Assembly (NCBI GenBank): GCA_027315255.1
Contig: DAHUYL010000065.1
Location: 1-45,779, forward strand
Length of the DNA stretch: 45,779 nucleotides
Reading direction: 5' to 3'
From: Solirubrobacterales bacterium
GTDB taxonomy: Bacteria; Actinomycetota; Thermoleophilia; Solirubrobacterales; Solirubrobacteraceae
The notes under the pieces are model-generated. The model was not told the origin of the DNA. It did not search any database and saw only the letters and a list, made by a program, of their open reading frames with translations. This document shows positions 18,430 to 33,725 of this stretch, in pieces (the stretch's first letter is position 1; every line of letters begins with the position of its first letter). The position numbers and the translations under genes are program-made.

Positions 18430-19111
18430 CGCTACCTGCCCTTCGCCCGACGTGCCGCGAGAAAGGCTCCCGCCCGAACCGGCGCCAGAGCGCACACCTC
18501 CACGATCGCAGCAGCGACGGTGATCAGACGAGTTGCGGGCATTCGGAGTCCTTTCGGCCTTGCTATCTGATGAACGAGAAGTTGGTGAGGTCACGACCGG
18601 CGCTGCGATTGCCGCAACGCCACCAGCGCACGGTCAAGTCGTCCCAGCGTGGTCCGGGGCGTTGCCGTGCGCAGAAGCCCCGCTCCGCACGTAAGTCGCT
18701 TCCAGTTTACGCGGCGCTCGGCACGCTCTGCCGCAACACGACGCTTGCGTGGCGGGCGCGCTCCCCGCACGGCCGGTGGCGAAGATCCGCGTGACCTGCT
18801 CCATGCTCGCGGCGAACGCTAGATCAGGGGCGTGAGATCAACGTGATACGGACGCTTGCCGCGGCAGGCGAGCGGAGAGGAGTCCGGACGCCGGACAGCG
18901 TCGAAACCGCCTTGATGCACCGCAATTCGGGCGGCAATTGGCCCCAATCCGTACGAGGACAACGCGATGTGGGTGAAACCGTCGCTGTCAGCGGCAGTTG
19001 GCCCCAAATCGACAGGCCGCCTGGCGGATTGGGGCGATCTGCGCACTCGACCAGGCAGCCAGCCAGCGCACACACGCCCCAGCGACCTGAAAGATCAGTC
19101 CGTGCGCGGGG
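18430..19111. other. 682-base intergenic region without a recognisable gene
   Basis: It lies between the surface-protein gene and the methyltransferase gene, both on the minus strand. The open frames on either strand are short, Arg-rich and without ribosome binding sites or family resemblance. The left part must hold the promoter of the surface-protein gene, which I cannot place. The right part contains a direct repeat with 60-base spacing and an inverted third copy (separate entry). Confidence 0.6.
18931..19035. repeat. Direct repeat at 60-base spacing with an inverted partial copy
   Basis: GCGGCAATTGGCCCCAATCC at 18931-18950 recurs as GCGGCAGTTGGCCCCAAATC at 18991-19010 (17 of 20 identical, exactly 60 bases apart). 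The reverse complement of GCCCCAATCCG occurs at 19024-19034 (CGGATTGGGGC). The core TTGGCCCCAA is itself nearly palindromic. It may be a degenerate dispersed repeat or a set of binding sites. Confidence 0.55.
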
Positions 19112-29677: not shown

Positions 29678-30870
29678 GAGCCGCAAGTCGGATCGACGGC
29701 CTCGGGACGACGATCTTCACCGAGATGACGGCGCTCGCGGAGCGGACCGGCGCGATCAACCTCGGCCAGGGGTTCCCCGACCGCGACGGCCCCGTCGAGA
29801 TCATCGACGCGGCGATCGCGGCGCTGAAGGCAGGCGCCAACCAGTACGCGCCGCTGCCGGGCGTGCCGGCGCTGCGCGAGGCGGTGCTCGAGCACCAGCG
29901 ACGCTGGTACGGGCTCGAGCCCGAGGATGTCCTGGTCACGTTCGGCGCGACCGAGGCGATCGCCGCCTCGCTGCTGGCGCTGTGCGAGCCGGGCGACGAG
30001 GTCGTCGTGATCGAGCCCTACTACGACTCGTATCCCGCGTGTATCGCGTTCGCGGGTGCGCAGCGGCGGGTCGTCACGCTGCGCCCGCCTTCGTTCCGGC
30101 TCGAGGCAGAGGGGTTGCGAGAGGCGATCGAGGGCGGCGCCGGGCGCACCCGCGCGATCGTGATCAACACCCCCCACAACCCGACCGGCCGCGTGTTCGG
30201 GCGCGACGAGCTGTCGCTCGTAGCGGACGCGTGCGTACGGCACGACCTGGTCTGCATCAGCGACGAGGTGTACGAGCACCTCGTCTACGACGGCGAGCAC
30301 GTGCCGCCCGCGACGCTGCCGGGGATGGCGGAGCGGACGCTGACGATCTCCGGCATCGGCAAGTCCTTCTCGGTGACCGGCTGGAAGATCGGCTGGTGCT
30401 CGGGGCCGGCGGAGCTGGTCGGCGCCACCCGCGCGGTCAAGCAGTTCCTCACGTTCGCCGGCGGCACGCCGCTGCAGCACGCCGCCGCGGCGGCGCTGCG
30501 CCTCCCGGCGGTCCACCTCGCGCAGCTCCGAGACCAGCTGCGGGCCAACCGCGACGCGCTCTGCACGGCGCTCGAGGCGGCCGGCTGGACGGTGTTCGAG
30601 CCCGCCGGCACCTACTTCGTGAACGCCGACGTGGGGACGGACGCCGTCCGGTTCTGCGCGGAGCTGCCGCAGCGCTGCGGCGTGGTCGCGATCCCCACGG
30701 GCGTCTTCTACGACTCGGATGTGGCGCCCGGCCTCGTCCGCTTTGCATTCTGCAAGCGGCCCGAGGTGATCGCCGAAGCGGCGGCGCGGCTTGGCCGCTT
30801 GGGCAGGCCCGGGGCTCAGCCGAGCAGCGCGGCGAAGTCCGAGTCCGCCAGCAGCGCGCCCGGCGCCTGA
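29674..30870 (+). CDS. PLP-dependent aminotransferase class I (kynurenine/methionine aminotransferase-like)
   Basis: A protein of 398 aa of fold-type I. The sequence INLGQGFPDRDGP near 28-40, the substrate-binding VIEPYYDSYPAC, NTPHNPTGRVF (165-175), ISDEVYEHLVYD with the PLP-contacting Asp and Tyr, and GIGKSFSVTGWKIGW with the Schiff-base Lys at 230 place it near kynurenine aminotransferase and YbdL-type methionine aminotransferase. It moves the amino group from a large neutral or aromatic amino acid to a 2-oxo acid in the cytoplasm; the substrate is not determined. The last 18 codons overlap the convergent orphan gene on the minus strand by 55 bases. Confidence 0.9.
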   Translation: MRAASRIDGLGTTIFTEMTALAERTGAINLGQGFPDRDGPVEIIDAAIAALKAGANQYAPLPGVPALREAVLEHQRRWYGLEPEDVLVTFGATEAIAASLLALCEPGDEVVVIEPYYDSYPACIAFAGAQRRVVTLRPPSFRLEAEGLREAIEGGAGRTRAIVINTPHNPTGRVFGRDELSLVADACVRHDLVCISDEVYEHLVYDGEHVPPATLPGMAERTLTISGIGKSFSVTGWKIGWCSGPAELVGATRAVKQFLTFAGGTPLQHAAAAALRLPAVHLAQLRDQLRANRDALCTALEAAGWTVFEPAGTYFVNADVGTDAVRFCAELPQRCGVVAIPTGVFYDSDVAPGLVRFAFCKRPEVIAEAAARLGRLGRPGAQPSSAAKSESASSAPGA

Positions 30871-31262
30871 GCAGCGCTCTCGCGGATCGCCGTGCCGAGC
30901 AGGTCGAGCCTTGACTCGAGCTCGGCCAGCACCTCGTCGCGGTCCGCGAGCAGCTCCGCGGGGCTGCCGTCGATGTTCGCGCCGAGGCGCGCGACCAGCT
31001 GCCGGGTCTCCTCGAGCAGCTCCTCGGGAGCGAGCCCGTCGAACGAGCGCAGCAGCGCGGTCACGCCCGTGATCAGCGCACCGGCCGTTGCGGCGACCGT
31101 CCACGCGACGCGGAACGCCTCGCCGCTGTCGAGACCGTCGAGGCAGCCGTCCTCGCCGAGCAGCTGGCCGATCGAGCTCCGGATCGAGGCGATCGACTCC
31201 CGCATCGAGCCGGCTGAGAGGACCGCGTCGGCCGCGTCCCGGAATCGTTCAGGTTTGACCAT
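30816..31262 (-). CDS. Conserved-looking helical protein, unknown function
   Basis: A protein of 148 aa from the ATG at 31262, chosen because a strong ribosome binding site (GGGAGGT) lies 8 bases upstream; an earlier in-frame start at 31286 would bury it. The sequence is helical: an amphipathic N-terminus (VKPERFRDAADAVLSAG), a hydrophobic stretch (VAWTVAATAGALITGVTALL, about 57-76) that could be one membrane helix, and an acidic Leu-rich C-terminus with heptad character (ADRDEVLAELESRLDLLG). I do not recognise the family. It has a near-consensus sigma-70 promoter (31318-31347), so it is probably a well-expressed single gene. Its end overlaps the aminotransferase by 55 bases, tail to tail. 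Confidence 0.72.
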   Translation of the reverse strand: MVKPERFRDAADAVLSAGSMRESIASIRSSIGQLLGEDGCLDGLDSGEAFRVAWTVAATAGALITGVTALLRSFDGLAPEELLEETRQLVARLGANIDGSPAELLADRDEVLAELESRLDLLGTAIRESAAQAPGALLADSDFAALLG

Positions 31263-31317
31263 CTTCCATGACCTCCCGTGTGCCAATTACGGGGCGAGCT
31301 CCTGGCGCTCACACCAG

Positions 31318-31347: not shown

Positions 31348-31626
31348 CGCTCTACTCACCGGTGCGGTCCGTTGCGGATCAGCGATCAGGCGAGGGATCG
31401 AGCGCGAACGTCGCGTCGCTTGCGGCGGTGAGCGGTGAGGTCGTGCTCACCCGGTTTTGGATCGGACTCGTCGCCTACGGCCGCCGCCGCGATCGCCACC
31501 TGATGGACCCCCGCGACGCGTGGCCCGCGAGATCGACCTCGAGCGGGATAGCCGGCTCCGTAGGTTCGTCCGCTCGAGCTCGTCACGGCCCGGGAGGCGG
31601 TCGCAGCGGCGATCAGCCACCACCAC
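31348..31626. other. Intergenic stretch without a recognisable gene
   Basis: No open frame here has a ribosome binding site or family resemblance on either strand. Apart from the edge of the orphan-gene promoter, I see no regulatory motif or repeat. It leads directly into the hairpin array. Confidence 0.5.
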
Positions 31627-31995
31627 AATCCCACACACCCCCTTGAGCCAGCGGGGGGGTCGTTGGATTGAGGCTGACAGAGCGCCCGAATCCCACAACC
31701 CCCTTCCGGAACCAGGAGGTGTGTTGGATCTTGGTCGTCGCAGGGTCGGCCGGACGCCCGAGACGCCGCGCCCCGGCGTTCCAACCGGCGCCGAACCGGA
31801 CCGACATCAACGTGCCACACCCCCTCGCCGCTGCCGGGGTTGGCACCGTGGCGTCGTGACAGAGCGCGAATGTGCCAACCCTCCCGCGCGGCCGGGAGGG
31901 TATGCGGCGTTGCGACCAGTCGCGGCCCGGCGTAGTGGCAGGTTGCCTCGGGGTCGGCACCCCCTGCCGTACCGACAGGGTCGGCGCGACCTGCC
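31627..31995. repeat. Array of five hairpins, two of them as linker-joined dyads
   Basis: H1 31627-31669 (feet AATCC/GGATT, C-run against G-run); H2 31689-31730 (feet AATCC/GGAT); H3 31812-31846 (GTGCCA-ACCCC against GGGGTTGGCAC, one bulge); H4 31872-31901 (ACCCTCCCG, 6-base loop, CGGGAGGGT); H5 31937-31995 (GGCAGGTTGC against GCGACCTGCC). H1 and H2 are joined by TGACAGAGCGCCCGAA (31675-31690), and H3 and H4 by TGACAGAGCGCGAA (31857-31870). Feet differ between the dyads, but within each dyad the two hairpins share them. Upstream, non-coding, and ends about 110 bases before the monooxygenase start. It resembles a palindromic-repeat element of REP/BIME type with actinobacterial sequence; copies elsewhere in the genome cannot be tested here. 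Confidence 0.65.
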
Positions 31996-32105
31996 CACCC
32001 TCGGTGGCCCCGCCCGGCAGTACGATCGGAGCCGAACGACGGACGGAGCCGCCGAGGCCCGTCGGTCCTCCGCCCAGAGGTCCAGCGAGTCAGTCCACCA
32101 GAGAG

Positions 32106-33725
32106 ATGGCCGCGCTACACCAGTACGCCGCGGACGCCGCGGACGCCGCGGACGCCGAGCCGAGCCCCGAGCACTTCGACGTGCTGATCGTCGGCGCCGG
32201 GCTGTCCGGGATCGCGTCGGCCTGGCACCTGCAACGCCACCTGCCCGGCAAGCGGTTCGCGATCCTGGAGGCGCGCGAGGCGATCGGCGGGACCTGGGAC
32301 CTGTTCCGCTACCCCGGCGTTCGCTCGGACTCCGACATGTTCACGCTCGGCTACACGTTCAGGCCGTGGGCCGCGCCGGAGGCGATCGCCGACGGCCGTG
32401 CGATCGCCGAGTACCTGCGCGAGACGGCGCGCGAGCACGGGATCGACCGCCGGATCCGCTTCGGTCACCGCGTCACCCGGGCCGAGTGGGACTCGACCGA
32501 CGCCCGCTGGACCGTCACCTGCGAGAACGCCCGCGACGCGAGCGAGAACGCGAGCGAGAACGCGAGCAACAACGCGAGCGACGCGCCGGCGGCCCGGCTG
32601 ACATGCGACTTCATCCACTTCTGCACGGGCTACTACCGCTACGACCAGGGGCACACCCCGACCTGGCCGGGAACCGAGCGCTTCCGCGGGCGGATCGTCC
32701 ATCCGCAGCACTGGCCCGACGCGCTCGACGTCGCCGGCCGCCGGATCGTCGTGATCGGCAGCGGCGCCACCGCGGTCACGCTCGTGCCCGCGCTCGCGCG
32801 CACGGCCGCGCACGTGACGATGCTCCAGCGCTCGCCGACCTACGTGATGGGGCTGCCGGCGCGCGATCCGCTGGCCGACCTGCTCCGGCGCCGGTTGCCG
32901 GCACCGCTCGGCCACCGGCTCGCCCGGCTCAAGCAGATCGTCCTGACCGCCGCCTTCTACGAGCTCAGCCGGCGCCGGCCGGCGCTCGTCAAGCGGCTGC
33001 TGCGCGCCGGCCTGAAGCGCCGCCTGCCGGCCGGCTTCGACGTCGACCGTCACTTCAAGCCGAGCTACGCACCGTGGGACCAGCGGCTCTGCATCGTCCC
33101 CGACGACGACCTGTTCGAGGCGATCGGACAGCGGCGCGCCGCTGTCGTGACGGACACGATCGAGACGTTCACCGAGACGGGCGTCCGCCTGCGCTCCGGA
33201 ACGCAGCTGGACGCCGACGTGATCGTCACGGCCACCGGCCTCGAGCTGCTCGCGCTGGGCGGAACCGAGCTGTCGGTCGACGGGCGCCCGGTCGACGTCG
33301 CGGCGACGATCGCCTACAAGGGAACGCTGTTCACCGGGATCCCGAACGCGGCGCTCGCGATCGGATACACGAACGCGTCGTGGACGCTGAAGGCCGAGCT
33401 GATCTGCGAGTACGTGTGCCGGCTGCTCGCGTTCATGGACTCCCACGGCTACGACTGGTGCGTCCCGCTCGAGCCCGACGAATCGCAGCCGCGGCTGCCG
33501 CTGCTCAACCTCACCTCCGGCTACGTGCGGAGGGCCAGCGATCGGCTGCCGAAGCAGACCGACCGCGCGCCCTGGCGCATGAACCAGAGCTGGTTCGCCG
33601 ACGTCCGCGACCTGCGCCGCGCGCGGATCGACGACGGTGGCATCCGCTTCGGACACGCGGGCGAGCCGGTCGGCCTCGACGCCGCCTCGGACCTGCTCGT
33701 GCGCGGCGATGTGAATCTGACCTGA
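32106..33725 (+). CDS. Flavin-containing Baeyer-Villiger-type monooxygenase (EthA-like)
   Basis: A protein of 539 aa from the ATG at 32106. FAD-binding Rossmann motif GAGLSG at 30-35, the FAD-contact EAREAIGGTWDLFRYPGVRSDSD region, a Baeyer-Villiger-type fingerprint in the form FRGRIVHPQHWPD, the second NADPH Rossmann motif VIGSGATAVTLVPAL, and VTATGLEL near the end. These enzymes use NADPH and O2 to oxygenate ketones, sulfides or steroids; EthA of Mycobacterium is the closest type by motif. Two low-complexity insertions stand out: DAADAADA near the N-terminus and ASENASENASNNASDA between the NADPH strands, made by 9- to 15-base repeats. The frame is open upstream through the hairpin array, but there is no start-like context there. 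Confidence 0.9.
   Translation: MAALHQYAADAADAADAEPSPEHFDVLIVGAGLSGIASAWHLQRHLPGKRFAILEAREAIGGTWDLFRYPGVRSDSDMFTLGYTFRPWAAPEAIADGRAIAEYLRETAREHGIDRRIRFGHRVTRAEWDSTDARWTVTCENARDASENASENASNNASDAPAARLTCDFIHFCTGYYRYDQGHTPTWPGTERFRGRIVHPQHWPDALDVAGRRIVVIGSGATAVTLVPALARTAAHVTMLQRSPTYVMGLPARDPLADLLRRRLPAPLGHRLARLKQIVLTAAFYELSRRRPALVKRLLRAGLKRRLPAGFDVDRHFKPSYAPWDQRLCIVPDDDLFEAIGQRRAAVVTDTIETFTETGVRLRSGTQLDADVIVTATGLELLALGGTELSVDGRPVDVAATIAYKGTLFTGIPNAALAIGYTNASWTLKAELICEYVCRLLAFMDSHGYDWCVPLEPDESQPRLPLLNLTSGYVRRASDRLPKQTDRAPWRMNQSWFADVRDLRRARIDDGGIRFGHAGEPVGLDAASDLLVRGDVNLT

What the first reader, a model, noticed from the sequence alone, without database searches (positions are those of the whole stretch)
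31627..31995. Hairpin dyads joined by a conserved linker, a possible new palindromic repeat element
Five hairpins occur in under 370 bases of non-coding DNA. H1-H2 and H3-H4 form two dyads, each joined by nearly the same linker (TGACAGAGCGCCCGAA and TGACAGAGCGCGAA). Within a dyad both hairpins share their feet (AATCC/GGAT or GTGCCA), while the feet differ between dyads. This modular 'same linker, different feet' order is like REP/BIME elements, but the sequences match none I know. It could be mobilised by a REP-associated transposase, encode a structured RNA, or bind a nucleoid protein.
Basis: partly seen in the sequence, partly recalled or inferred. Interest (0 to 1): 0.72.

Follow-up and report, generated by a model that had tools for sequence, protein, structure and literature searches.

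The report
Dispersed paired-palindrome DNA repeats, unknown role
The two hairpin pairs are copies of a scattered, non-coding DNA repeat of almost fixed length (about 119 letters) found at dozens of places in this bacterium and in some relatives; its matching arms change more slowly than the loops between them, which suggests, but does not prove, that an unknown partner molecule recognises it.

Summary
H1-H2 (31619-31738) and H3-H4 (31801-31919) are two copies of one dispersed palindromic element of about 119 bp. I counted 60 places in the own genome, in three subfamilies. A second model, R2, trained partly on relatives, matches 19 of 28 genus genomes, 7 of them with at least 15 strand matches, and 16 of 399 sampled in the class. 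H5 is not a member. Arms covary strongly, best as one long hairpin. Between sister genomes G011 and G020 arms (26/440 differences) change less than loops (20/120) and flanks (70/564); against the more distant G024, arms change less than loops but not less than flanks. An inner-arm box differs as a set between lineages: TGCA at 23 of 23 printed G011+G020 loci, 0 of 8 in G024. The RAYT idea finds no support: no Y1 transposase in the own genome. No target duplication, no Rfam match. Closest kinds: REP/BIME, CIR, ERIC. I read it as a new family of that kind, kept by a sequence-specific trans factor that I did not find.

The parts
31619..31738 (.). Element E1 (H1-H2), subfamily A, 120 bp, near-palindromic
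   Evidence: R1 101.1 / R2 93 bits plus strand, 78.2 / 73.6 minus (E1 is in the training set of both models); independent homology to own-genome copies
31619..31642 (.). E1 outer arm X
   Evidence: alignment A7, structure
31643..31655 (.). E1 loop 1, sequence not conserved between copies
31656..31674 (.). E1 inner arm Y
31675..31683 (.). E1 centre; the shared 11-mer runs 31675-31685
31684..31702 (.). E1 inner arm Y', complementary to Y
31703..31714 (.). E1 loop 2, sequence not conserved between copies
31715..31738 (.). E1 outer arm X', complementary to X
31801..31919 (.). Element E2 (H3-H4), subfamily A, 119 bp; arms X 31801-31824, Y 31836-31854, Y' 31864-31882, X' 31896-31919; loops 31825-31835 and 31883-31895
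   Evidence: R1 80.6 bits (E2 in R1's training set) and R2 54 bits, E 2.8e-8 (E2 not in R2's training set); homology; arms read from alignment A4
31857..31867 (+). E2 copy of the shared 11-mer TGACAGAGCGC
18929..19046 (.). Probable third, diverged copy in the window, between two called genes; weak
   Evidence: R2 28.6 bits, E 0.0019; centre CTGACAG; gene calls; with R1 only a 41-nt partial match, E 0.046

Best explanation
E1 and E2 are copies of a dispersed, non-coding palindromic repeat family of the REP/CIR-like kind, but a new family. Anatomy, shown: outer arm X (about 24 bp), loop of about 12 nt with free sequence but near-fixed length, inner arm Y (about 20 bp), a short centre, then Y', loop, X'. 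X pairs best with X' and Y with Y'; the four arms also carry a related core (CAACCCCC here), so hairpins side by side are possible too. Single 58-bp units and 60-bp-period trimers exist. History, inferred: the unit spread as a non-autonomous mobile palindrome by an unidentified agent, subfamily by subfamily. Present state: copies compared between two sister genomes sit at the same sites and their arms change less than loops and flanks (shown for that pair only). Most likely mechanism, inferred: a trans-acting factor reads the arms as folded or duplex DNA in a sequence-specific way, the two inverted arm pairs acting as spaced half-sites. This would explain why loop length is kept but not loop sequence, and why the inner box differs as a set between lineages. 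The factor and the cellular output are unknown; a role near gene 3' ends (chromosome structure, transcript ends) fits best.
For: Dispersion: 60 own-genome places counted; R2 gives 141 strand matches. Outside R1's training genome: R1, built from 8 own copies, hits 10 of 27 other genus genomes at E<=1e-3; one-contig genome G015 has none. Pairing: on 60 copies the long-hairpin structure has 81.0% of cells paired, 41 of 43 pairs with two-sided changes, covariation 0.513 against at most 0.143 when slid; side-by-side gives 67.1% and 0.309 against at most 0.149. Length: 119 in 33 of 57 own dimers and 117 in 17 of 18 G011 copies, although in the A and B sets loops are only 34-37% identical and arms 52-79%. 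Constraint in place: five G011/G020 orthologues, arms 26/440, loops 20/120, flanks 70/564, no gap inside the elements; p=5e-4 for arms against loops and against flanks. Five G011/G024 orthologues: arms 116/435 against loops 52/118, p=4e-4. Set-wise inner box: TGTGCA and TGCACA at 23 of 23 printed G011+G020 loci, 0 of 8 in G024, including five orthologous loci (one matched by one flank only), while loops and centres stay diverse. Context: own genome 27 tandem, 19 convergent, 7 divergent, 2 overlapping, 5 undetermined; G011 8, 6, 2, 2; convergent against divergent, one count per gap, 18 to 6 (p=0.023), with G011 24 to 8 (p=0.007).
Against: No trans factor, expression data or binding data. Against G024 the arms do not change less than the flanks (116/435 versus 150/537, p=0.67) and the elements do show gaps, so constraint on arms relative to flanks rests on the G011/G020 pair, where three of five loci supply nearly all substitutions. 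The window pair lies between divergent genes, not at 3' ends. Template switching between arms can create covariation without selection. The element is dispensable: G024 lacks it at one locus where G011 and G020 have it, and 9 of 28 genus genomes have no R2 match at E<=1e-4. Which inner-box state is ancestral is unresolved; G011 and G020 share loci, so the 23 are not independent. Subfamily C lies in a similar non-coding stretch of up to about 500 bp, so part of its conservation may belong to something larger. Covariance searches favour copies of model length, which inflates length constancy.
Confidence: 0.45

Rival explanations
1. Plain non-autonomous mobile palindromes (MITE/REP-like) spread by an unrecognised transposase, without host function; symmetry is kept because only symmetric copies move and because template switching repairs arms against each other.
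For: Dispersed subfamilies; in A and B no flank similarity except overlapping windows of neighbouring copies, two short matches between unrelated loci and one rearranged duplicated pair; a presence/absence difference; partial end units repeated beside some copies; arms no slower than flanks against G024.
Against: No target duplication for k=2-9 above shuffles, no Y1 transposase in the own genome, orthologous copies at the same loci with arms slower than loops in both comparisons and slower than flanks in one, lineage-wide inner box.
Confidence: 0.32
2. Structured RNA element at transcript ends: a long stem that stops exonucleases, is cut by RNase III, or terminates transcription in both directions.
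For: With RNA parameters 54 of 57 own dimers are predicted as the long hairpin; convergent gaps exceed divergent ones.
Against: No significant wobble bias on the sense strand (66 versus 53, p=0.27; 25 tandem dimers plus one copy overlapping a called gene); no Rfam match; does not explain a set-wise sequence box; the window pair lies between divergent genes.
Confidence: 0.15
3. Covariation made purely by the mutational process: quasipalindrome template switching homogenises arms inside each element, with no selection.
For: Known process (PMC8794818, PMC7202029; abstract starts in the listing only); in G024 and G005 the inner boxes resemble the outer ones.
Against: Arms are also more similar than loops between copies and between orthologues; if TGCA is the derived state, no arm of the same element offers it as template.
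Confidence: 0.08

Closest known systems
REP / BIME / REPIN (GTAG and CGTC families with or without RAYT)
   Same: Dispersed, mostly intergenic palindromic unit, frequent dimers whose parts may fold separately or as one large stem, mainly between same-direction and convergent genes, species-specific families (abstract and passages of PMC3733652)
   Different: Unit about 58 bp with about 22-bp stem and about 12-nt loop, not 20-40 bp with 5-13 bp stem; no constant GTAG/CGTC tag; no RAYT found; dimer length almost fixed
CIR (Caulobacter CcrM-associated intergenic repeats, CIR1-CIR4)
   Same: About 110 bp, several types, two inverted-repeat arms joined by a linker, mobility mechanism unclear (section 7 of PMC2229807)
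   Different: Alphaproteobacterial; GANTC at a terminal loop is the hallmark, here 3 of 57 own dimers have GANTC in the loop regions; here the best pairing is one long hairpin
ERIC / IRU / RU-1 and other bacterial MITE-like repeats
   Same: ERIC is a 127-bp repeat; most such repeats are under 200 bp, do not code and pair 5' end with 3' end (passages of PMC2229807)
   Different: No TA ends or target duplication; G+C-rich rather than A+T-rich; two nested arm pairs with two free loops

Membership tests
REP/REPIN with RAYT | RAYT (Y1 transposase, REP type) in the genome | tested here: not met
   PF01797 0 matches in own genome at 92.2% completeness; in relatives 4 of the 13 listed matches classified, all IS200
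REP/REPIN with RAYT | Repeat flanks the transposase gene | tested here: not met
   Six of 13 Y1 matches had stored loci: no R1 match in L137-L142, no R2 match in L137-L140
REP/REPIN with RAYT | Unpaired GTAG or CGTC tag at one end | tested here: not met
   GTAG near an end in 1 of 57, CGTC in one sense in 8 and in the other in 21 of 57; no constant tag in A7
REP/REPIN with RAYT | 20-40 bp palindromic unit | tested here: not met
   58-bp single units (L068, L071); 57 dimers of 114-121 bp
REP/REPIN with RAYT | Many copies, mainly extragenic, dimers common | tested here: met
   60 places, 2 of 60 overlap a called gene
MITE / ERIC-like | Target-site duplication or TA ends | tested here: not met
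   No excess for k=2-9 in the A+B set; TA on both flanks in 0 of 57
MITE / ERIC-like | Terminal inverted repeats shared with an autonomous transposon | not tested
   No matching autonomous element was looked for beyond Y1_Tnp
CIR | Two arms joined by a linker, about 110 bp, several types per genome | tested here: met
CIR | Conserved GANTC at a terminal loop | tested here: not met
   GANTC in loop regions 3 of 57, anywhere 30 of 57
Rfam family | Match to a curated RNA family | tested here: not met
   0 at gathering score in the window; below-threshold matches only at 31400-32200

The most novel reading that the evidence does not exclude
The elements are a genome-wide set of recognition sites for a fast-changing trans-acting DNA-binding protein or recombinase: sites stay at orthologous positions while the inner-arm recognition box is replaced as a set across loci in a lineage, a bacterial case of site/factor co-evolution by dispersed palindromes.
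Probability: 0.25. Interest if true: 0.75.

Novelty: new variant of a known kind. Interest (0 to 1): 0.52.

Why it matters
If right, it adds a dispersed palindrome family in a poorly studied actinobacterial group where my searches found no such report, without the RAYT usually invoked for REPs. The orthologous copies make two open questions testable: how do REP-like repeats persist and spread without a RAYT, and are they kept by a partner protein? The set-wise inner box gives a handle for finding that partner.

Tried and rejected
Exact linker as family marker: rejected. RAYT/REPtron: no support. Known RNA family: none. Chance: rejected by homology searches and by hits in genomes outside R1's training set. 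Side-by-side hairpins as the main fold: second best. Target duplication: none. RNA wobble test: inconclusive. Element-flanked helper gene: I read translations between neighbouring copies in C185, C56 and C167 by eye; only the C167 gene was run against Pfam, a tyrosine-recombinase fragment, a single case. Exact hairpin pattern in genome contigs: 30 stretches; under R1 one full dyad (L132, Solirubrobacterales MAG clean274, at a contig end); weak single-unit-like matches in L111 (Chloroflexi MAG, E 0.003; R2 E 4e-4), L136 (E 0.011) and below, not followed. Window locus in the genus: 18 of 28 genomes match, own included, but relatives' matches start at the flavin monooxygenase gene, not in the intergenic stretch; the five relatives' loci stored have no R2 match. 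Integron attC was considered from general knowledge only. No structure prediction was made because no protein is involved.

Limits: strand matches count each place up to twice. Own-genome searches scored at most 150 candidates, genus 130, relatives 59, class 9 per genome, so counts are lower bounds and absences soft. R2 was trained on 60 copies (28 own, 32 from 12 other genomes, G043 and G330 among them), so hits there are partly by construction; G133, G032, G304, G007 and G023 were not in it. Gene calls come from my own codon-usage script, which missed the 30816-31286 ORF. Subfamily sets differ between (motif rules, then by eye); the A set (21) holds some copies that I would place elsewhere. 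In one search, 23 of 49 flank gap columns come from a contig end (L170); with 26 the test is p=2e-8. L175 was cut at 97 bp; one search gives the full 117 bp, no TGTGCA or TGCACA. L169 and L170 are one locus. Only 18 G011, 6 G020 and 8 G024 copies were printed; one search counts 41, 36 and 24 strand matches there.

Full report
What is there. The window holds two dyads, 31619-31738 and 31801-31919, between a reverse ORF (30816-31286, no Pfam match) and a forward flavin-binding monooxygenase gene (called at 32106-33725; an in-frame GTG at 31872 would overlap E2). Their shared exact 11-mer occurs four times in the 4.31-Mb genome; the other two lie in coding-looking sequence. Folded one by one, H2 and H3 are no more stable than shuffles. 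So the single locus proves little; the family does.

The family. Each dyad finds further own-genome places by DNA similarity. A covariance model R1 from eight of these copies gave 117 strand matches at E<=1. After fetching loci I counted 60 places at E<=0.01: 57 dimers of 114-121 bp, one 107-bp copy and two single 58-bp units (L068, L071). They fall into three groups: A (window type, ACGACCTCAA..TTGAGGTCGT), B (GGGGCCAAAACGTC..GACGTTTTGGCCCC) and C (CTGCCAACCCCC cores). A and B have no flank similarity beyond overlapping windows of neighbouring copies, two short matches between unrelated loci and one rearranged duplicated pair. C lies in similar non-coding sequence of up to about 500 bp.

Range. 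R1 hit the own genome and 10 of 27 other genus genomes at E<=1e-3, plus one of 33 others, G043. R2, from 28 own and 32 relatives' copies, hit 16 of 399 sampled class genomes at E<=1e-4, five of them outside the genus: G133, G032, G330, G043, G304, of which G330 and G043 gave training copies. In the genus it hit 19 of 28, with at least 15 strand matches in seven: G000 119, G011 41, G020 36, G005 31, G014 26, G024 24, G004 15. Sequences differ by genome but the architecture stays. G005 has 60-bp-period trimers.

Pairing. On A7 the long-hairpin structure pairs 81.0% of 2554 cells, covariation 0.513 against 0.105-0.143 when slid; the side-by-side structure pairs 67.1% of 2733, 0.309 against 0.098-0.149. 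In family A alone the two are closer: 81.6% and 0.235 against 71.9% and 0.205. Predicted folds favour the long hairpin in 54 of 57 (RNA) and 47 of 57 (DNA) own dimers; E2 as DNA on the plus strand is a mixed, branched fold. In B positions 6-13 pair outer with outer at 58-100% but within a hairpin at 0-47% (seven of eight at 17% or less); C is intermediate. So 'feet shared within a hairpin' is a special case. Symmetric protein sites would give the same covariation as a folded strand; the data do not separate them. The sense-strand wobble test was not significant.

Maintenance. Among own copies of the A and B sets loops are 34-37% identical and arms 52-79%, with length 119 in 24 of 37. Five orthologous pairs between G011 and G020 give arm differences 26/440, loops 20/120, flanks 70/564 (p=5e-4 for arms against each) and no gaps inside elements; two pairs are nearly identical, so three carry the signal. 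Five pairs between G011 and G024 give outer arms 54/237, inner arms 62/198, loops 52/118, flanks 150/537, with gaps in elements and flanks: arms slower than loops (p=4e-4), not slower than flanks (p=0.67). Presence is not absolute: the L181 locus has the element in G011 and G020 (L195), but in G024 the sequence between the two genes is short and has none.

Set-wise inner box. All 18 G011 copies I printed and all 6 G020 rows (5 loci) carry TGTGCA and TGCACA in the inner arms; none of 8 printed G024 copies does, where GGGGG or close variants stand instead. Five loci are orthologous by flanks (L087/L078, L089/L099, L092/L098, L178/L173, and L180/L175 by one flank). The Fisher value (1e-7) treats loci as independent, which shared G011/G020 loci are not. 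Centres and loops of the G011 copies differ from each other, so simple gene conversion of the whole inner tract is unlikely (inference). Polarity is open: G005 and G024 have inner boxes like their outer ones, while subfamily B here also has TGCA.

Context. Own genome: 27 tandem, 19 convergent, 7 divergent, 5 undetermined, 2 overlapping called genes. G011: 8 tandem, 6 convergent, 2 divergent, 2 overlapping. One count per gap gives convergent 18 to divergent 6 (p=0.023), with G011 24 to 8 (p=0.007). This resembles what is reported for REPs (abstract of PMC3733652), but the window pair is in a divergent gap.

What it is not. Y1_Tnp is absent from the own genome and present in 6 of 28 genus genomes, 3 of them among the ten other R1-positive ones, or 5 of 18 R2-positive and 1 of 9 R2-negative, a difference too small to weigh. 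Of 13 listed matches, the four classified are IS200 and the six with stored loci hold no element under R1, the four rescanned none under R2. There is no target duplication, no constant GTAG/CGTC tag, GANTC in loop regions of only 3 of 57, and no Rfam family.

Literature. Searches for REPs in Thermoleophilia and palindromic intergenic repeats in Solirubrobacter returned no paper; broader searches gave general REP, MITE and CIR papers and none. I saw abstract and passages of PMC3733652, passages and section 7 of PMC2229807, abstract and outline of PMC8266576, passages of PMC12306157 and PMC2267715, and only listing abstracts of PMC8794818 and PMC7202029. The library lacks most subscription journals, so novelty in print is provisional.

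Verdict. A real, apparently new, patchily spread palindromic repeat family of the REP/CIR-like kind: shown. Arms kept better than loops between orthologues: shown for two comparisons; better than flanks: for one sister pair only. Recognition by a co-evolving trans factor: inferred, a little under even odds as the overall mechanism.

Noticed in passing
window 31936-31998: H5 is a separate inverted repeat (GGCAGGTTGCC.., RNA z -2.95 on plus strand) upstream of the called monooxygenase start; not a member of the family, possibly an operator or leader structure.
   Followed up: partly
L187:176-1665 (own genome C167:4575-6064): A tyrosine-recombinase fragment (Phage_integrase, E 2e-8) lies between a B-type and a C-type element; its ORF ends in an RDSNPG-like stretch often seen beside tRNA genes (recalled, not tested).
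   Followed up: partly
L132:7580-7697 (G330 contig end): A copy very like the own genome's C elements sits at the very end of a contig of a MAG from another genus; transfer or assembly mix-up are both possible.
   Followed up: no
L103, L078, L096 flanks: Short tandem repeats resembling the element's outer-arm end (about 20-bp units) next to some copies in G020, G024 and G005, suggesting replication slippage or template switching at element ends.
   Followed up: no
L033:1501-1618 and L028:1726-1846: Nearly identical hybrid B/A copies with shared flank pieces at different distances; looks like a rearranged duplication.
   Followed up: partly
subfamily C loci, e.g. L032, L042, L043: C elements sit inside similar non-coding segments of up to about 500 bp with a conserved GTCGAGCGCTCSACCTGAC-like stretch downstream at variable distance from the core; nature unknown.
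   Followed up: partly
L111:139-195 (Chloroflexi MAG): A single-unit-like hairpin scoring E 0.003 with R1 and 4e-4 with R2 in another phylum; could be chance, as it was found by pattern.
   Followed up: no
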